Of a DNA stretch of 20,613 bases, positions 2,497-20,586 are shown in pieces. The DNA comes from a virus. The stretch covers positions 1 to 20,613 of IMG/VR virus record IMGVR_UViG_3300042516_003264. One strand, given 5' to 3'. The notes below the pieces were generated by a model. It had not been told where the DNA came from, made no database searches, and was given only the letters and a program-made list of their open reading frames with translations. How positions within the stretch are numbered: position 1 is the first letter of the stretch; each line of letters begins with the position of its first letter. Made by a program: the position numbers and the translations under genes.

Positions 2497-3834
2497 ATGG
2501 CCAATTTCATCACGCGATGGTTCGGCTCCCGCCACAAGACCATGGGCAGCAGCCTGCGGGATCCGGCGCTGATCGACCTGCTCGGCGGACGCATCACCGA
2601 GGCAGGTGTGCGTGTGGACGAATCCACCGCTCTCACCTGCGCCACGGTGTGGGCTGCGGTGCGGGTGATCTCCGAAGGCGCCGCCAGCCTGCCGCTCATC
2701 ACCTACCGCCGGGATAGTGGCACCCGCGAGCGAGCCACCGACCATCCGCTCTACAACCTCCTGCATGACGAGCCGTGCCCAGGCATCGGGTCGCTGGTGT
2801 GGCGTGAAGCGCTATTTGCGCATGCGCTGACCTATGGCAACGGCTACGCAGAGATCGAGCGCCGAGCCAGTGACGGCATGCCGGTGGCGCTGTGGTTGCT
2901 GGCACCCGAGCGGGTTGAGCCGTACCGCGAGATCGATGGCAACATCTATTACAAGGTCACCCAACCCAAAGGCGGCCATGTCACGCTACCGGGTGCGAAT
3001 GTCATCCATTTGCGTGGTCTCGGTGGCGATGGCGTCATGGGTTACAGCGTCATTCGCACCGCACGGGAAAGCCTCGGCCTGACCATTGCGGCGCAGCAGT
3101 TCGGTGCCAAGCTGTTCGGCACCGGCGCAAGGCCATCTGGTGTGCTGGAGCACCCAGGCAGGCTAAGCGATGACGCACGGCAGCGCCTGCGTGCCGACTA
3201 CGAGCGGCTGCACTCCGGCCTCGATAATGCGCACCGCATCGCCATTCTCGAAGAGGGAATGAAGTGGCAGGCGCTTGGCGTGCCGCCGGATGATGCGCAA
3301 TTTTTGCAGACTCGGCAGTTCCAGGTGGCCGAGGTGGCTCGCTGGTTCAATGTGCCGAGCTCCAAGCTGCGGGACAACACCGGCCAGACCTACAGCAGCA
3401 TCGAGGCGGAAAACCAAGCGTTTTACACCGAGACGCTCAGGCCGTGGCTGATTCGGTTTGAGCAGGAGCTCAGCATCAAGCTGCTGAACACCGTGGAAAA
3501 GCGCGAGTACTACTTCGAGCACCTCATCGAAGGCCTGCTGCGTGCGGATGTGAAAACACGCTTTGAGGTCTACGCACTCGGCAAAAACTGGGGTATCTAC
3601 TCCACCAATGAAATACGGGAGCGGGAAAACCTGCCACCTATCGAAGGTGGTGATGTATTCCTGCAGCCGCTCAACATGCAGCCACTGGATGCGCCGGCGG
3701 GTCCGTCTGCGCCATCAGCCACCCCGGCGCTGGCCCCCGCGCCTTCGCCCAGCGCAGACTCCACCCCTGCCGGCGCCGGGGACACACCCACACGCAAACG
3801 AGGAGGCAGTAATGCAACTCGAAAAAAGAACTAG
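2497..3834 (+). CDS. Portal protein, HK97 family
   Basis: Forms the dodecameric ring at one head vertex through which DNA enters and the tail attaches. The 445 residues begin MANFITRWFGS, typical of the family, and contain the expected core around ALTYGNGYAEIER, VIHLRG, and ARWFNVPSSKL followed by QTYSSIEAENQAFY, which is strongly diagnostic of HK97-type portals. The last 60 or so residues are a disordered Ala/Pro/Ser tail ending in a basic KRGGSNATRKKN. The start ATG is preceded by GAGG at 2492-2495 with only about one base of spacing, which is unusually tight; an in-frame ATG at 2542 is a poorer alternative. The gene overlaps the start of the protease-capsid gene by 23 bases. Confidence 0.95.
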   Translation: MANFITRWFGSRHKTMGSSLRDPALIDLLGGRITEAGVRVDESTALTCATVWAAVRVISEGAASLPLITYRRDSGTRERATDHPLYNLLHDEPCPGIGSLVWREALFAHALTYGNGYAEIERRASDGMPVALWLLAPERVEPYREIDGNIYYKVTQPKGGHVTLPGANVIHLRGLGGDGVMGYSVIRTARESLGLTIAAQQFGAKLFGTGARPSGVLEHPGRLSDDARQRLRADYERLHSGLDNAHRIAILEEGMKWQALGVPPDDAQFLQTRQFQVAEVARWFNVPSSKLRDNTGQTYSSIEAENQAFYTETLRPWLIRFEQELSIKLLNTVEKREYYFEHLIEGLLRADVKTRFEVYALGKNWGIYSTNEIRERENLPPIEGGDVFLQPLNMQPLDAPAGPSAPSATPALAPAPSPSADSTPAGAGDTPTRKRGGSNATRKKN

Positions 3835-5800
3835 CAGCCTGGAGCAAGACGGCGGCAAGCTGGTCGGCTACGCCGCGGTCTATGCGCCTGCCACCAGCGA
3901 AGACCTCGGCGGCTTCAAGGAGCGCATTCACCCAGGCGCTTTTGACGCATCGCTGGAAAAGAACGCCGACATCCGAGCGCTTTGGGACCACAACACCAGC
4001 CAGCCGCTGGCACGCACCACAAACGGCACGCTCAAGCTGGCCAGCGACAAGCGCGGCCTGCGGGTGGAGATCGAGCTGCCGGAAGGCGTCAGCTACGCCG
4101 ACGACCTGCGCCAACTGGTGCGCAGCGGCGTGGTGAACCAGATGAGTTTCGGCTTCATGGTCCCGCCGGGTGGCGACACCTGGGAGAAGGACGAGGAAGG
4201 CAACGCCGTTAGGACGCTGCACAGCATCGACCTCCACGAGGTCAGCGTGGTCAGCATCCCGGCCTACCCGGACACCACTGTCGCTTTGCGCGGCCTGCGG
4301 CAGATGGACTTTGAACAAAGGCGTGCGCGGTGGCTTGCATCGCACGGTCATCGTGCTGCCAAGGAATTAGGTTTTCAATCACTCAGAGGAAATCAAATGA
4401 ACCGAATTGAAGAGCTCAAGAAACTGACCGAGGAGCGCGCTGCGCTGGTTGAGCAAATCCGCGCGCTGACTCCCGAGGAGCAGGCGCAAATGGATGCGCT
4501 CACCCAGTCGGTGACCGACCTCGATGCTCGGGTGGCCGCCATCGAGGAGGCCATGGACTTTACTCCTGCCGAGGATCAGGTCGAAGAGGAAAACGCCGGC
4601 AGCGCTGGTCAGGCTGTCGAGGCTCAGAGGAAATTGGATGAGGTCGGCGCGCGTTGTGCCAGCCTCTTGGAGAAGCTGGAAAAGCAAACCACCAGGAGAA
4701 GTGCGCCGATGGACATCAAGGTTCCCTACGCTGTCAAGGATCTGAACGACAAGGCGTGGCACAACGACCGGAAGCTGGCCATGCGCGGCTGGTTCCTCGA
4801 AGGCAACGGTCGCGCCACCGACAAGCACCGCGCCGCCGCCGAGCGCATTGGTGTGAACCTGCGCAGCCGTGACTTCAATGTGAACCTGTTCTCTGAGGCT
4901 CCCCGCAGCCGTCAGGATCTGGAACAGCGTGGCACCGGCACCCAGGTGGCCGGCACCGGCAGCCTTGGCGGTTTCACGGTTCCCACCGTGCTGGTTGAGC
5001 GCATCGAGAAGGCGCTGCTCTACTTCAACCCGCTGCGCGAATTTGCCCAGGTGCTGCGCACCGAGTCTGGCGAGGCGATGCAGCTCCCCACCAATGACGA
5101 CACCGGCACCAAGGGTGAGCTGTTGGCTGAGAACGGCTCGGTCACCGTGGCTGACACCGCCTTCGGCCAGATCACGCTGAACGCCTACACCATGAGCTCG
5201 AAGGCGCTCAAGGTGAGCTGGCAGCTTCTGGAAGACAACGCCGTCGATCTGGAAGCCTACATCGGCGACCTGCTCGGCGAGCGCCTCGGTCGCATCATGG
5301 CCGACTACGCCGCCACCGGCACCGGCTCCAGCCAGCCGCAGGGTATCGCTGCCAGCACCGCCGGCAAGACCACTGCCTCGGCGACCGCCATCACATCGAG
5401 CGAAATCCTCGATTTGATCCACAGCGTGGACATCGCCTACCGGCAGGATCCTTCCTGCGCCTTGGTGATGCACGACAGCGTGTGGCTGTATGTGCGCAAG
5501 CTGGTGGACAGCAACGGCCAGCCGCTGTTCCAAGAGTCTTACCGCATCCCCGGCGAGATTCGCGTGCACGGCTTCCCGGTTGTGATTTCCAACAGCCTGA
5601 ACAGCGCCATCACCACCGGCCTCAAGACCATGGTTTTCGGCGCCATGAACAAGTTCCTTATCCGCGATGTGGCCAACATCCGCATCCAGCGGCTGGACGA
5701 GCTCTACGCCGCCAACGGCGCCGTAGGCTTCCAGGCATGGGCTCGCACCGACAGCAAGATTCTCGCCTCCGGCGCGATCAAGCACATGGTGCAGGCCTAA
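3812..5800 (+). CDS. Prohead protease fused to HK97-type major capsid protein
   Basis: One continuous 662-residue frame. Residues 1 to about 170 are an S78 (HK97 gp4-like) prohead protease with H60 in ALWDHNTSQP, S112 in NQMSFGF and E143 in DLHEVSVVSIPA, the expected triad. Residues 196 to about 300 form a charged coiled coil like the HK97 delta (scaffold) domain. The rest is the HK97 capsid fold, with GGFTVPTVLVERIEKAL, QLPTNDDTGT, SWQLLEDNAVDLEAYIGDLL and the C-terminal segment GFQAWARTDSKI. AGGAGG at 3801-3806 fixes the start at ATG 3812; the open frame upstream of it is a shadow of the portal. Most HK97-like phages use two genes here. An internal start (4397) may yield free capsid protein. 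Self-cleavage after translation is also plausible. Confidence 0.93.
   Translation: MQLEKRTSSLEQDGGKLVGYAAVYAPATSEDLGGFKERIHPGAFDASLEKNADIRALWDHNTSQPLARTTNGTLKLASDKRGLRVEIELPEGVSYADDLRQLVRSGVVNQMSFGFMVPPGGDTWEKDEEGNAVRTLHSIDLHEVSVVSIPAYPDTTVALRGLRQMDFEQRRARWLASHGHRAAKELGFQSLRGNQMNRIEELKKLTEERAALVEQIRALTPEEQAQMDALTQSVTDLDARVAAIEEAMDFTPAEDQVEEENAGSAGQAVEAQRKLDEVGARCASLLEKLEKQTTRRSAPMDIKVPYAVKDLNDKAWHNDRKLAMRGWFLEGNGRATDKHRAAAERIGVNLRSRDFNVNLFSEAPRSRQDLEQRGTGTQVAGTGSLGGFTVPTVLVERIEKALLYFNPLREFAQVLRTESGEAMQLPTNDDTGTKGELLAENGSVTVADTAFGQITLNAYTMSSKALKVSWQLLEDNAVDLEAYIGDLLGERLGRIMADYAATGTGSSQPQGIAASTAGKTTASATAITSSEILDLIHSVDIAYRQDPSCALVMHDSVWLYVRKLVDSNGQPLFQESYRIPGEIRVHGFPVVISNSLNSAITTGLKTMVFGAMNKFLIRDVANIRIQRLDELYAANGAVGFQAWARTDSKILASGAIKHMVQA
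4397..5800 (+). CDS. Likely separate major capsid product from internal start
   Basis: Within the protease-capsid frame, ATG 4397 opens MNRIEELKKLTEERAALVEQ, which looks like a natural delta-domain N-terminus, and it is preceded by AGAGGA at 4385-4390 with a 6-base spacer. Translation from here would give a 467-residue capsid protein without the protease, allowing many more capsid copies than protease copies from one reading frame. The charged helical delta region runs to about residue 100, and QTTRRSAPMD (97-106) is near where HK97 capsid is cleaved (after residue 103). The ribosome site and start are seen directly; their use is inferred. Confidence 0.6.
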   Translation: MNRIEELKKLTEERAALVEQIRALTPEEQAQMDALTQSVTDLDARVAAIEEAMDFTPAEDQVEEENAGSAGQAVEAQRKLDEVGARCASLLEKLEKQTTRRSAPMDIKVPYAVKDLNDKAWHNDRKLAMRGWFLEGNGRATDKHRAAAERIGVNLRSRDFNVNLFSEAPRSRQDLEQRGTGTQVAGTGSLGGFTVPTVLVERIEKALLYFNPLREFAQVLRTESGEAMQLPTNDDTGTKGELLAENGSVTVADTAFGQITLNAYTMSSKALKVSWQLLEDNAVDLEAYIGDLLGERLGRIMADYAATGTGSSQPQGIAASTAGKTTASATAITSSEILDLIHSVDIAYRQDPSCALVMHDSVWLYVRKLVDSNGQPLFQESYRIPGEIRVHGFPVVISNSLNSAITTGLKTMVFGAMNKFLIRDVANIRIQRLDELYAANGAVGFQAWARTDSKILASGAIKHMVQA

Positions 5801-11329: not shown

Positions 11330-12313
11330 ATGGCCTACACGCTTTTCAAAGAAGTCATCGAAGGCCGCAGCGGCAGCGTGGACCAGCGCTACCAGCGCGC
11401 CTATAAGCGCGTGTTTCTGGTCAAGACAGATTCGGCTGGCTACGGTCCATACTACGCTGGGAGCCATCCCAGCCTGCCGCTGGTCTGGTCGGTGCATCCA
11501 GAGGATCCTTTCGCCTATTGCGTTGGCTTCTCGGTTGATCAAGACCAGAATGATGGCACCCTGTGGCGCGTCACAGCTAACTATGCCTATAACGCCGACA
11601 CCTTTCAGGGTGGCGGAGTCGGCACTGGCGCCACCGGAAATCCGGCCATCGACACCCAGCAGCAAGGCCAAGCACCGACTGAGCGTGTGCAGAATCCACT
11701 GTCTAGGCCGCGGGACTACCAAATAGCCACCGTGGCCTACCCGGAAGCGCTGCGCGGCGACACCAACGGTAACGCCATTCTCAACAGCGCCTACGACCCA
11801 TTCTTGCCACCAAGCGAAATCCAGCGTTTTGGCGCTCAGGTGACTATCGGCCTCAATGCGGCCACGCCACCGTCTGAAGCATGGATGAGCGCAGTTGGCA
11901 AGCTGAACGCCAGCACGCTGACCATCACGCCGCCAGGTTCCACCATTTCGCTGGCAGCCAAAACCACCCGCCTCAACAGCCTCAACGCTCAGGCCGTCTA
12001 TGAAAACGGCGTAGCCTATTGGAGGTGGACGCTGGCCTTCGAGTTCAGGCCGAGCACGACTACCTACACCAGCGGTTGGGTGCAGCTTGGCAGCAGTTGG
12101 CCAGTCCTCGGCTGGAAGCTGGTGCTGCTCGATGCCGGCAAACGCCGCTGGGATGGCACGCGCTGGACGCCGTTTACTGATCCACCTGGACAGCAGCCAG
12201 TCACCCAGCCGGTGCTGATGGACGGCAACACCAACCGGCTGGCCGCCAACACCAAGCCGTACTACAAGGCCTGGGACATCTACCCGACCGTCACCTTCCC
12301 GAGTCCGCTCTGA
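11330..12313 (+). CDS. Probable tail tip/distal tail protein, unknown family
   Basis: A 327-residue protein after the tape measure, where distal tail and baseplate genes lie. It opens MAYTLFKEVIEGRSGSVDQR and is rich in aromatic residues and beta segments (VFLVKTDSAGYGPYYAGSHP, AYWRWTLAFEFRP, WVQLGSSWPVLGWKLVLLDA), with no membrane segment or signal peptide. I recognise it as a style seen in planctomycete prophages but cannot name a family. The GAGG in TGAGGT (11318-11323) precedes ATG 11330. A tail-tip or baseplate hub role is inferred from position only. Confidence 0.6.
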   Translation: MAYTLFKEVIEGRSGSVDQRYQRAYKRVFLVKTDSAGYGPYYAGSHPSLPLVWSVHPEDPFAYCVGFSVDQDQNDGTLWRVTANYAYNADTFQGGGVGTGATGNPAIDTQQQGQAPTERVQNPLSRPRDYQIATVAYPEALRGDTNGNAILNSAYDPFLPPSEIQRFGAQVTIGLNAATPPSEAWMSAVGKLNASTLTITPPGSTISLAAKTTRLNSLNAQAVYENGVAYWRWTLAFEFRPSTTTYTSGWVQLGSSWPVLGWKLVLLDAGKRRWDGTRWTPFTDPPGQQPVTQPVLMDGNTNRLAANTKPYYKAWDIYPTVTFPSPL

Positions 12314-12840
12314 TGCCTGGCTATTCGCTGGAGCTGGAGACAATCAAGCGCCTTGGCAAGATGCTCAAGGCGTATGAAGGCGGCGGCATGGCGCCAACGC
12401 TGCGGGAGCACCTCACCGAGCAATACGAGGTGCAAGGCGTTGCAGTGCGCGTGGTGCAGGTGACGGGTGCCAAGCAATCAGACGGCACCTACCCGGCAAA
12501 GCTGCTTGGCAGAAATAGCGAGGCCTACAGTGCCACTTGGTCAGATTACGAGATCGTCAGCGTCATCGAGCCAAACAACGCCACGCTGACCAACGGCAAC
12601 AAGTATGTGGCGCTCTGCGTTGGCTGGTATGCCGGCAGTGGTTCCGGGTCCGGCTCAGGCTCTGGCAGCGCGTCCGGTCTGTGGGTGGTGGCTGGTAGTG
12701 TTTCCAGCACTGCGTCAAACCTGACGCAAACCGTTGTGACTGATGTGACCTGTTCTGGTTCGACGCTGGTGGTGACCAAGAAGACTCTAGTCATACCAGG
12801 TGGCTCTATTTCTTCTGGCTCAGGCAGTGGATCCGGTTGA
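12313..12840 (+). CDS. Tail-associated protein with Ser-Gly repeats
   Basis: A 175-residue protein starting by ATGA overlap. Residues 1 to about 105 look like a compact alpha/beta domain (MPGYSLELETIKRLGKMLKA, EVQGVAVRVVQVTG, NGNKYVALCVGWY). Then a (Gly-Ser)6 tract at 12634-12669, a Ser/Thr-rich beta segment, and a second Gly-Ser tract that runs to the last residue. No known family is recognised. The domain resembles a tail-fibre or tip module with flexible linkers. Its stop overlaps the start of the next gene, which begins with its own Gly-Ser tract. Confidence 0.6.
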   Translation: MPGYSLELETIKRLGKMLKAYEGGGMAPTLREHLTEQYEVQGVAVRVVQVTGAKQSDGTYPAKLLGRNSEAYSATWSDYEIVSVIEPNNATLTNGNKYVALCVGWYAGSGSGSGSGSGSASGLWVVAGSVSSTASNLTQTVVTDVTCSGSTLVVTKKTLVIPGGSISSGSGSGSG

Positions 12841-12920
12841 TGGCTGAGGTCAAGTTTTACTACAGAAATTGCACCTGTTGCTCAGGAAGCGGTTCAGGCT
12901 CCGGCAGCGGGTCCGGCAGT
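12634..12920 (+). repeat. Three (Ser-Gly)n-coding tracts
   Basis: Tracts at 12634-12669, 12814-12837 and 12882-12920 code for alternating Gly and Ser across two adjacent genes. The Ser codons vary (agt, tcc, tca, tct, agc) and so do the Gly codons (ggc, ggt, ggg, gga), so this is repetition kept at the protein level, not a simple DNA microsatellite. Confidence 0.9.
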
Positions 12921-13586
12921 CAGAATTGTGAGTGCCAATATTGGGCAAATACGCCTTGCGCTGGTGAATCCTACGATGCTTGTGAAAGCATTCGGCTGAG
13001 AGCTGTTATTACCTTTGACTATTCAGGCTGCAGTTCCTTTTACGGTGGCAGTTTTTGGAAATGTTCCGGTTCATCTGCCAGCGGAGCTGAGACTGGAATA
13101 GCGCCACCAGAAGAGAGCGGCAGTGACAGCGGTTCATGTCTTCAAGAATGTCCAGATTGTTGCGACCTGTTGCCAGACAGCATCACCCTAGATCTTGTTT
13201 GTGTTGGTGACACCTATGTCACCGAAAATTTGATTGATGCAAATCCGGAAGATCCAAGCTGGTCATTTGACAGCAACTGCCTTGGCAACAGGCCAGACAA
13301 GCAGACCTATATGGTTTTCCCAAGCTGCATGTTTAGCGATAGCAATAATTGCACCGGAATACTTAACATACCTCTAGACGGGTTTTATTTGGTTTTCTAC
13401 CTGTTTGCTGATCCTTTTTACTTGAATCTTGTTTCCTGCAATCCGCTAGATGTCAGATACTCAATAACCTGCGGCAATTCAAGCACTTCAGTTGGTTTCA
13501 GTTTGATGCCATGTCTGAGCGCCTGTATTGGCGACAACACCTGCTGCGTGAGAGCAAACATTTCTATAACCGAGGCTTTTCCGTGA
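12840..13586 (+). CDS. Cysteine-rich Ser-Gly protein, likely tail-tip/receptor protein
   Basis: A 248-residue protein, MAEVKFYYRNCTCC then (Ser-Gly)6 then QNCECQYW. It contains about 23 cysteines (roughly 9 percent), including CC pairs and a SCLQECPDCCD cluster, spread along the whole length. There is no clear signal peptide, so disulfides would have to form after lysis or the cysteines bind metal. A hydrophobic, aromatic segment (FYLVFYLFADPFYLNLV) lies in the C-terminal third, but it looks like a beta region rather than a clean membrane helix. The gene is AT-richer than its neighbours, suggesting recent transfer or a fast-evolving receptor-binding module. Function unknown. ATG overlaps the previous TGA. 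Confidence 0.6.
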   Translation: MAEVKFYYRNCTCCSGSGSGSGSGSGSQNCECQYWANTPCAGESYDACESIRLRAVITFDYSGCSSFYGGSFWKCSGSSASGAETGIAPPEESGSDSGSCLQECPDCCDLLPDSITLDLVCVGDTYVTENLIDANPEDPSWSFDSNCLGNRPDKQTYMVFPSCMFSDSNNCTGILNIPLDGFYLVFYLFADPFYLNLVSCNPLDVRYSITCGNSSTSVGFSLMPCLSACIGDNTCCVRANISITEAFP

Positions 13587-18473: not shown

Positions 18474-19625
18474 CTAACCGTATCTCTCTACAATTTGGGA
18501 CCGCTGGGACTCTGTGATTTGCGCATAACGCAAAGTGATGTTGTCAGACTGGTGACCGAGAATAGCACCAATCACATCGGTATCAACACCTTTCAATTTC
18601 AAATAGGTCGCCGAAGTGTGGCGAATTTGCCTAGGGGTATAGGCTGGTATTCCTAACTCTTGGCACCGCCTCACAAACACATTGCGGTAGGTGTCCTTCA
18701 GGATGGTCCCGCCTTTTGTAGTTGGGAACAACAAGCCGCCAGACTTGGCGCTGGCGATAAAAGGCTCAACGGCTTTCCGCGCTCTTGGTCCCAACAAAAT
18801 GACCAGCTTTTGACCACGGTGCCGGCCTTTATGTTGTCGCGGTATGTACTGCCAGACACCATCGCCACGCTTGATTTCCTTGGCACTGGCAGTGATAGCT
18901 GTTTCTGCGCGCTGGCCGGTGTAAAGGTGGAAATTAAAGATGGCTCGCCATCTGCCTTTGAGCGCTTGCCTAAGCATCGCTAGGTGCTTGATTGGGATAG
19001 GCTCAATCAGCCGGCTTTTCTTGCCAACACCGCGGACTCGTTCCCACCTGGACAATCGGATGAACTGTTCGCTTGTGATCCAGTCCTGTTTTTCAGCCTT
19101 GGAAAAGCAGCGAACTAATCGACCCATGTATTCCCGAAGTGTTTTGGCGCTGATCTTTTTCCTACCCATCGCCAGTCGATCCCTGACGAGGTGCATGTGC
19201 TGGCGTGAAATCTCTTTAAGTGGTGTGGACCCAAGGCCAAAATCAGCGACCAGCTGAGCGGCTCGTTTGCAAACTCCGAATTCTCCGGTCGGCTTACCAT
19301 CCAAACGAACATATTCGCGCCGGCATTCCTCCAGCCACCAAGCCAGCAGGCCTGCCCAGGTGTGAACCTTCGTTGGAACCTTTGACTTAATTTCGCCAGC
19401 ATTTTCTCTGATATATTCTTCTGCCCACTTTGTATAGGCAAGCTGGGTGTCAATTACACCTGAAGGACCAAAGTAAACAACCTTCTTGGTGCCGGGAATG
19501 GTCACATAAGAGCGACCTGACGCCTTATGGTGGCGCAGGGTTGGCACCCGGATTTTCGGTAAAGCTGACTGAATTTCGGTAGAAGGTTTCGGTAAATGAT
19601 CCAATTTTCGGTAATCTTCTGGCAT
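18474..19625 (-). CDS. int: Tyrosine recombinase (integrase)
   Basis: A 383-residue site-specific recombinase. The N-terminal arm-binding type region (TLRHHKASGRSYVTIPGTKK, then VVYFGPSGVIDTQLAYTKWA) is the type I associate with planctomycete phages. A core-binding helical domain follows, then the catalytic domain with R239 (TGQRAE), R335 in RQIRHTSATYL, H358 (LGHQSDN) and Y367 (RYAQ). The usual first His of box II is replaced by R332. ATG 19625 is used here; a GTG at 19547 is an alternative start that would remove 26 residues and leave all five TTTCGGTAA repeats outside the gene. Its recombination target is probably tRNA-Pro, given the fragment at 19692-19737. It reads into the downstream AT-rich gene. 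Confidence 0.94.
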   Translation of the reverse strand: MPEDYRKLDHLPKPSTEIQSALPKIRVPTLRHHKASGRSYVTIPGTKKVVYFGPSGVIDTQLAYTKWAEEYIRENAGEIKSKVPTKVHTWAGLLAWWLEECRREYVRLDGKPTGEFGVCKRAAQLVADFGLGSTPLKEISRQHMHLVRDRLAMGRKKISAKTLREYMGRLVRCFSKAEKQDWITSEQFIRLSRWERVRGVGKKSRLIEPIPIKHLAMLRQALKGRWRAIFNFHLYTGQRAETAITASAKEIKRGDGVWQYIPRQHKGRHRGQKLVILLGPRARKAVEPFIASAKSGGLLFPTTKGGTILKDTYRNVFVRRCQELGIPAYTPRQIRHTSATYLKLKGVDTDVIGAILGHQSDNITLRYAQITESQRSQIVERYG

Positions 19626-19635
19626 TTTCGGTAAT
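19553..19635 (+). repeat. Direct repeats TTTCGGTAA, integrase-side arm (5 copies)
   Basis: Copies of T(T)TTCGGTA(A/G) begin at 19553, 19574, 19587, 19605 and 19625, all in the same direction, with TTTCGG steps of about 20, 13, 19 and 20 bases. Regular spacing near two helical turns fits cooperative binding of integrase arm domains or Xis. They lie across the integrase start codon and first 25 codons. Not CRISPR: unit and spacer are far too short. Confidence 0.75.
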
Positions 19636-19691
19636 CCTAACCGAGGTAGCCGTTTTGCGTTTTACCCTTATTTTCCAGAGGTTTAAGGCAT

Positions 19692-19737
19692 TCGGGGCGA
19701 CAGGATTCGAACCTGCGACTTCTTGGTCCCAAACCAA
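19692..19737 (-). other. tRNA-Pro(TGG) 3' fragment, probable att core
   Basis: On the minus strand the sequence folds as a tRNA 3' half: anticodon stem TTGG, loop TTTGGGA (anticodon TGG), CCAAG, variable AAGTC, T-arm GCAGG-TTCGAAT-CCTGT (first pair is G-U) and acceptor strand CGCCCCG then discriminator A. The 5' half is absent, because what precedes it is AT-rich unrelated sequence. It should be the crossover region for integration into the host tRNA-Pro gene. No CCA is encoded. Confidence 0.85.
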
Positions 19738-19780
19738 TCTGAAAAATTTGGAAAACACTGCAAAACAAGCCTCTTTCTGC

Positions 19781-19869
19781 TTTTCGGTAGCCATTCTGGC
19801 CACAACCTATACCCCCATTTTCCCCTGATTTCTTCAGTACGGAAGTGCAATTTCGGTAATTCGGTAAAT
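19781..19869 (+). repeat. Direct repeats TTTCGGTAA, far arm (3 copies)
   Basis: Copies at 19781 (TTTTCGGTAG), 19851 (TTTCGGTAAT) and 19860 (TTCGGTAAAT), the last two nearly adjacent. They have the same direction as the integrase-side set, on the other side of the tRNA fragment. The two sets together make the arms of an attP site. Confidence 0.65.
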
Positions 19870-20049: not shown

Positions 20050-20334
20050 GTGGAGTTCTTGAAAACGACCGAGGTGGCTCGCCAGTTGGCGGTTTCACCC
20101 AACACAGTGCTCAGTTGGATAACGACCGGCGTACATATCGCCGGCATAAATCACCGGCTCGATGCGCAACGCATTGGGCGCAATTTCCGAATCACCCAAG
20201 ATTCGGTGAATAAATTCCTGGCTGATATGCAGCCAAACCAGACTATTTCTTGCGTGGCTTCTTCGCCTTCGGCTTTGCGGCTTCCTGCTCGGCGGGAGTC
20301 TCGGAGTCTGGAGCGGCAGTTACGGAAGAAATGA
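20050..20334 (+). CDS. Excisionase-like HTH protein
   Basis: A 94-residue protein from GTG 20050. MEFLKTTEVARQLAVSPNTV then LSWITTGVHIAGINHRLDAQ and RIGRNFRITQDSVNKFLADM form the winged helix-turn-helix of the MerR/excisionase type (HTH_17), with a small extra loop before the R-I-G-R strand, as in planctomycete phages. The last 30 residues are Ser/Arg-rich and overlap the opposite gene, so they may be non-conserved tail. With an int gene and attP next to it, an excisionase or control role is likely. A strong ribosome site is not visible. Confidence 0.75.
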   Translation: MEFLKTTEVARQLAVSPNTVLSWITTGVHIAGINHRLDAQRIGRNFRITQDSVNKFLADMQPNQTISCVASSPSALRLPARRESRSLERQLRKK

Positions 20335-20492: not shown

Positions 20493-20586
20493 GTCGACCC
20501 CTGTCAACAAAAATTACCAAGTTTTCCTTGAATTGAAAAGTTTTTAAACCGAATAGGGTTACAGGGGTTGACAGGGGTCGACCCCT
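20493..20586 (+). promoter_or_regulatory. Inverted-repeat operator or origin-like region
   Basis: A perfect 16-base inverted repeat, GTCGACCCCTGTCAAC at 20493-20508 and GTTGACAGGGGTCGAC at 20567-20582, is separated by a 58-base AT-rich spacer. The right copy extends into a 14-base palindrome AGGGGTCGACCCCT (20573-20586), and just before it is a tandem ACAGGGG unit (20561-20567, 20571-20577). The right copy holds a TTGACA (20568-20573) that may be a -35 element for rightward early genes past the window, with only a weak -10 following. Looping or repressor binding, or a replication origin, are both possible. Confidence 0.55.

What the first reader, a model, noticed from the sequence alone, without database searches (positions are those of the whole stretch)
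19553..19869. Apparently intact attP: tRNA-Pro 3' fragment between two arrays of TTTCGGTAA arm sites
Eight direct repeats lie on both sides of a tRNA-Pro(TGG) 3' fragment next to a tyrosine integrase. An integrated prophage would normally separate the two arms onto its opposite ends. Having both here points to the free phage genome, or to a circular assembly join. The repeats are a clear candidate for a new integrase/excisionase arm-site consensus.
Basis: partly seen in the sequence, partly recalled or inferred. Interest (0 to 1): 0.75.

Follow-up and report, generated by a model that had tools for sequence, protein, structure and literature searches.

The report
Intact phage attachment site, tRNA-Pro targeted
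This is the complete chromosome-attachment site of an uncultured temperate phage: a borrowed tail of a proline tRNA gene flanked by eight short repeats that its integrase probably grips; it is an ordinary kind of site, well preserved, with the unusual detail that several repeats lie inside the start of the integrase gene.

Summary
Eight direct TTTCGGTAA-type repeats (five at 19554-19634, three at 19782-19867) flank a 46-nt tRNA-Pro(TGG) 3' fragment (19692-19737, minus strand), beside a tyrosine integrase and a divergent HTH/excisionase-like gene. No shuffle out of 3000 gave more than five copies of any 9-mer. The window is an entire IMG/VR contig. An 85%-identical relative (33.8 kb) has the same anatomy, with structural genes on one side and about 12 kb of phage early genes on the other, so this is an unsplit attP in a phage genome, not a prophage edge. 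The 46 nt are identical to the 3' part of complete tRNA-Pro(TGG) genes in 27 bacterial genomes. The repeats are conserved as DNA: four are read in three different reading frames at the start of the int ORF, where synonymous divergence falls to 0.23 against 0.74 in the rest of the gene. The best reading is integrase arm-type sites of a standard tRNA-targeted attP, which probably also autoregulate int. This is a new member of a known kind. Planctomycetota is a plausible host but is not proven. No integrated copy was found, and no binding was tested.

The parts
18474..19625 (-). tyrosine integrase, 383 aa from ATG 19625 (conserved TTAGGA 9 nt upstream); a shorter alternative starts at GTG 19547
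   Evidence: PF00589 5.7e-17; phrog_1 integrase 5.5e-38; catalytic residues R239, K266, R335, H358, Y367 read from the sequence (R332 replaces the box-II His); homology with other integrases begins about residue 27
19554..19562 (+). arm-type repeat 1 TTTCGGTAA (inside int ORF)
   Evidence: 9/9 conserved in relative
19574..19582 (+). arm-type repeat 2 TTTCGGTAG (inside int ORF)
   Evidence: 9/9 conserved
19587..19595 (+). arm-type repeat 3 TTTCGGTAA (inside int ORF)
   Evidence: CTTCGGTAC in relative
19606..19614 (+). arm-type repeat 4 TTTCGGTAA (inside int ORF)
   Evidence: 9/9 conserved
19626..19634 (+). arm-type repeat 5 TTTCGGTAA (between Shine-Dalgarno-like TTAGGA and int ATG)
   Evidence: 9/9 conserved
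19692..19737 (-). attP core: tRNA-Pro(TGG) 3' fragment, 46 nt; predicted crossover within the anticodon loop TTTGGGA at 19727-19733
   Evidence: exact match to the 3' part of complete tRNA-Pro(TGG) in 27 genomes; identical in relative
19782..19790 (+). arm-type repeat 6 TTTCGGTAG
   Evidence: lost in relative (4/9)
19851..19859 (+). arm-type repeat 7 TTTCGGTAA
   Evidence: 9/9 conserved
19859..19867 (+). arm-type repeat 8 ATTCGGTAA (shares one base with repeat 7)
   Evidence: 9/9 conserved
20050..20334 (+). putative excisionase, 94-aa HTH_17 protein, divergent from int
   Evidence: PF12728 5.4e-7; phrog_66 and phrog_2907 excisionase, about 1e-4; 84% identical in relative, same place

Best explanation
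This is the intact attP of a temperate tailed phage, in its non-integrated form. The integrase's catalytic and core-binding domains act at the anticodon stem-loop part of the tRNA-Pro(TGG) fragment. Its N-terminal domain holds TTTCGGTAA arm sites on both sides of the core, five on the int side and three on the excisionase side, so that bent attP DNA captures a host tRNA-Pro gene. Integration would leave the host tRNA intact, because the phage supplies an identical 3' end, and would put the five-site arm at one prophage end and the three-site arm at the other. The HTH_17 protein is the likely directionality factor for excision. Because the int-side sites cover the start of int, Int bound there should also repress its own gene. 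Shown here: the anatomy, the conservation, the tRNA identity and the phage genes on both sides in a relative. Inferred: Int binding, the crossover position, Xis function and autoregulation.
For: Repeats far above chance and confined to this site, in the window and in the 33.8-kb relative, where exact copies occur only at att and 1-mismatch copies elsewhere are at control level. Sites are 90% conserved against 82% for other att sequence and 78% for nearby int coding; seven of eight sites are kept (one of them altered at both ends) and one is lost. Repeats inside the int ORF are read in three frames, and there pS is 0.23 against 0.74 in the rest of int while pN is higher (0.165 against 0.097), so the constraint acts on DNA and not on protein. 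The core equals the 3' 46 nt of complete tRNA-Pro(TGG) in 27 genomes. Phage structural genes lie on one side and SSB-like, replication, RusA and HNH genes on the other in one contig. Another integrase sits directly after the same tRNA-Pro in a Gemmataceae genome. The same plan is described for mycobacteriophage Pixie, with direct arm sites on both sides of a tRNA core (PMC3203893).
Against: No binding data. No prophage with the arms split was found. Conservation rests on only two distinct sequences. One site (19782) is absent in the relative. An N-terminal arm-binding fold is suggested by predicted strand-strand-strand-helix only in a very low-confidence model (mean pLDDT 35), which is not usable. 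The excisionase assignment rests on weak profile matches.
Confidence: 0.82

Rival explanations
1. The site is attP, but the repeats are bound by the HTH_17 excisionase (or by Xis and Int in competition) and not mainly by Int; Int arm sites are something else in the conserved stretches.
For: A 57-nt stretch at 19811-19867 is almost invariant beyond the repeats, so other protein sites exist; the HTH_17 gene is adjacent and co-conserved.
Against: The repeats stand on both arms and number eight, as Int arm sites do. Excisionase sites usually lie in a few copies on one arm (general knowledge of lambda and KplE1).
Confidence: 0.12
2. The repeats are replication iterons or repressor operators that happen to lie around the tRNA fragment.
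For: The same 9-mer forms arrays in other phages inside Phage_rep_O replication genes.
Against: Those arrays have a TTACC half in front (TTACC-N-TTTCGGTAA), which the window repeats lack. The relative's replication initiator lies 6 kb away with no such repeats. The repeats bracket the integration core.
Confidence: 0.05
3. An integrated prophage end or a mis-joined contig, with the apparent attP created by assembly.
For: The window contig ends only 746 b after the last repeat, so its right side alone cannot exclude it.
Against: The relative shows the same junction in contigs from two metagenomes (100% identical to each other over 20,304 b), followed by 12 kb of phage early genes in the 33.8-kb one.
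Confidence: 0.02

Closest known systems
Mycobacteriophage Pixie attP (and L5, Giles, CrimD), tyrosine-integrase attP sites (PMC3203893)
   Same: 47-bp common core overlapping a tRNA gene, integrase next to it, direct arm-type repeats on both sides (Pixie: two of them left and three right in direct orientation)
   Different: Different tRNA (Lys in Pixie), different arm consensus, integrase only about 25% identical to actinophage integrases; here eight sites, four of them within the int ORF
KplE1 prophage intS / attL, autoregulated integrase (PMC2951348)
   Same: tRNA 3' fragment, then arm sites, then int, all in one direction, with arm sites overlapping the int control region
   Different: There the sites overlap the promoter and the autoregulation was measured; here the sites overlap the start codon and first codons, and regulation is only inferred
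tDNA islands with an anticodon-centred attP (Islander subsite A, PMC4383910)
   Same: Identity begins at the anticodon stem and runs to the 3' end of the tRNA gene, so the tRNA is restored
   Different: No integrated copy known for this phage

Membership tests
Tyrosine integrase attP of the arm-and-core (bivalent) kind | adjacent tyrosine recombinase with catalytic residues | tested here: met
   PF00589 5.7e-17; R239, K266, R335, H358, Y367 present; box-II His replaced by R332
Tyrosine integrase attP of the arm-and-core (bivalent) kind | core identical to a host attB | tested here: met
   46 nt identical to complete tRNA-Pro(TGG) genes in 27 genomes
Tyrosine integrase attP of the arm-and-core (bivalent) kind | repeated short sites on both sides of the core | tested here: met
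   5 + 3 direct repeats, conserved in relative
Tyrosine integrase attP of the arm-and-core (bivalent) kind | N-terminal arm-binding domain in Int | tested here: inconclusive
   no Pfam arm-binding domain; structure model too poor; residues 27-75 conserved in relatives
Tyrosine integrase attP of the arm-and-core (bivalent) kind | Int binds the repeats | not testable with these tools
   needs gel shift or footprint
Tyrosine integrase attP of the arm-and-core (bivalent) kind | integrated copies with one arm at each end | tested here: inconclusive
   no close relative of the integrase in 392 genomes of the phylum of G003 (Gemmataceae; two matches at E<=1e-25, only 27-30% identical) or in 289 of the phylum of G006 (Chthoniobacterales; none at E<=1e-20); repeat pairs in hosts at control level
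Phage_rep_O-type origin with TTTCGGTAA iterons | repeats inside a replication initiator gene, in a TTACC-N-TTTCGGTAA dyad | tested here: not met
   window repeats lack the TTACC half and lie at int; Rep_O genes carry them in L018, L060, L083

The most novel reading that the evidence does not exclude
Arm-type sites are built into the first codons and the ribosome-binding region of the integrase gene itself, so that the recombination complex and control of int expression use the same DNA; the extra N-terminal 26 residues exist mainly to carry these sites.
Probability: 0.35. Interest if true: 0.4.

Novelty: new member of a known kind. Interest (0 to 1): 0.33.

Why it matters
It gives a complete, testable attP with a clear arm-site consensus for a phage lineage that, judging by tRNA and portal-protein relatives, probably infects Planctomycetota or neighbours. 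A tRNA-Pro(TGG)-specific integrase with its full attP is a candidate integration tool for bacteria with few genetic tools. The overlap of arm sites with the int start is a clean case for testing integrase self-repression.

Tried and rejected
(1) Relatives by repeat pattern: over 100 viral contigs hold TTTCGGTAA pairs, but apart from the two contigs of the relative the best arrays have no related integrase, and three checked are in Phage_rep_O genes. (2) More integrase relatives: the A1 alignment and the HTH protein found only the same two contigs; the phage collection gave about 25% identity only. (3) Structure prediction of Int from two sequences: pLDDT 35, discarded; no fold search made. (4) Prophages with related portal proteins in Planctomycetota: no related integrase in the stretches fetched. 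(5) A terminase search in the same phylum failed twice on the server. (6) Rfam found no RNA here, the tRNA fragment alone does not fold unusually, and promoter and terminator scans are at chance level. (7) Related integrases L166 and L168 (next to tRNA-Asn) have no comparably clear arm array.

Full report
What is there. The window is a whole IMG/VR virus contig of 20,613 b without terminal repeats. From left to right it carries a large terminase subunit, a portal, a prohead protease fused in one long ORF to the major capsid protein, tail-side genes, an HNH gene, then a tyrosine integrase on the minus strand (18474-19625), the site in question, and a 94-aa HTH_17 protein on the plus strand (20050-20334).

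The repeats. Eight plus-strand copies of TTTCGGTAA, at most 1 mismatch each, start at 19554, 19574, 19587, 19606, 19626 | 19782, 19851, 19859. In 3000 dinucleotide shuffles of the 350-b segment no 9-mer reached more than five non-overlapping copies; eight are observed. An earlier version of that test counted overlapping copies in T-runs and is superseded. Exact copies occur nowhere else in the window. In the relative's 33.8-kb contig the exact copies are all at its att site, and 1-mismatch copies elsewhere are at the level of the reversed-pattern control.

The core. Window 19692-19737 (minus strand) is TTGGTTTGGGACCAAGAAGTCGCAGGTTCGAATCCTGTCGCCCCGA. The same 46 nt occur exactly in 27 genome contigs, and in each ARAGORN finds a complete tRNA-Pro(TGG) over them. 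The window itself has no complete tRNA. Identity starts at the anticodon stem and ends at the discriminator base, the pattern of anticodon-centred tDNA attachment sites (PMC4383910). I therefore predict the strand exchange in the anticodon loop TTTGGGA (19727-19733); this is inference.

Not a prophage edge. A relative in two IMG/VR contigs (33,805 and 20,304 b, identical over the shorter one) has an 85% identical integrase and the same att anatomy. In the longer one, structural genes precede int and about 12 kb of phage early genes follow the excisionase-like gene: SSB-like DUF669, replication initiator, DUF4326, RusA, HNH. Both arms are thus together in the middle of a phage genome. That the window phage is the same is by homology, since its contig stops 746 b after the last repeat.

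DNA-level conservation. Between window and relative, the repeat positions are 90% identical, the remaining att sequence 82%, nearby int coding 78%, and the leader of the HTH gene 70%; the core is invariant (the core interval in that script was set one base low, which does not change the result because 48 nt are shared). Site 19782 is lost in the relative and site 19587 has changed at both ends; the others are unchanged. Four of the int-side repeats lie within the int ORF and are read in three different frames. In codons 1-26 synonymous divergence is 0.23 against 0.74 for codons 27-383, while nonsynonymous divergence is higher, 0.165 against 0.097. The constraint there is on DNA. The numbers are small (14 changes) and from one pair of sequences. 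Related integrases (27-28% identical, Planctomycetota genomes) begin close to window residue 27, so residues 1-26 are either an extension that carries the sites or, if GTG 19547 is the true start, untranslated leader. A conserved TTAGGA nine bases before ATG 19625 favours the ATG.

How it works. By analogy with characterised tyrosine integrases, the N-terminal domain of Int holds arm sites while the other two domains hold the core. The two unequal arms (five sites 100-172 b from the predicted crossover, three sites 56-133 b on the other side; with the crossover centre set one base over, at 19730) would end up on opposite prophage ends. The order tRNA fragment, arm sites, int, all in one direction, is the arrangement that PMC2951348 ties to integrase self-repression. 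The HTH_17 protein matches excisionase families weakly.

Host. Exact cores occur in three Planctomycetota contigs, many Spartobacteria, and Ignavibacteria/Bacteroidota. Portal relatives at up to 43% identity are found in 15 of 246 genomes from the phylum of the Gemmataceae genome G003, and a terminase relative (35%) in 1 of 195 genomes from the phylum of the Chthoniobacterales genome G006. The queries differ, so this is a hint and not a measurement. A Gemmataceae genome carries a different integrase gene about 106 b after the same tRNA-Pro, so this tRNA gene is used as an integration site in that phylum. No integrated copy of this phage was found.

Verdict. An ordinary, unusually legible attP, and a new member of a known kind; the nearest published layout is that of mycobacteriophage Pixie (PMC3203893). 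What goes beyond routine is the placing of arm sites over the int start.

Noticed in passing
L018, L060, L083 (also L009, L012, L039, L042, L049, L094): The same 9-mer TTTCGGTAA, preceded by TTACC-N, forms arrays spaced about 18-24 b in other phages; in the three checked (L018, L060, L083) it is inside Phage_rep_O replication genes. It looks like an origin iteron shared by distinct phages.
   Followed up: partly
L143 2-1388: Gemmataceae genome with a distantly related integrase gene (about 20-24% identical) starting about 106 b after the 3' end of the same tRNA-Pro(TGG): another integrated element at this attB.
   Followed up: partly
20493-20582: Perfect 16-nt inverted repeat GTCGACCCCTGTCAAC / GTTGACAGGGGTCGAC, arms 58 nt apart around AT-rich DNA, absent from the relative, which has a different 81-b palindrome at 27779-27859 of its contig; possible operator or origin.
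   Followed up: partly
19811-19867: 57-nt stretch nearly invariant between window and relative (one change), longer than the two arm sites in it; probably holds further protein sites (Xis or a DNA-bending protein).
   Followed up: no
3563-5800: Prohead protease (Peptidase_S78) and major capsid protein matches lie in a single open frame, suggesting a fused protease-capsid gene.
   Followed up: no
12313-13586: Two neighbouring ORFs with long Ser-Gly repeats (SGSGSG), one of them cysteine-rich.
   Followed up: no
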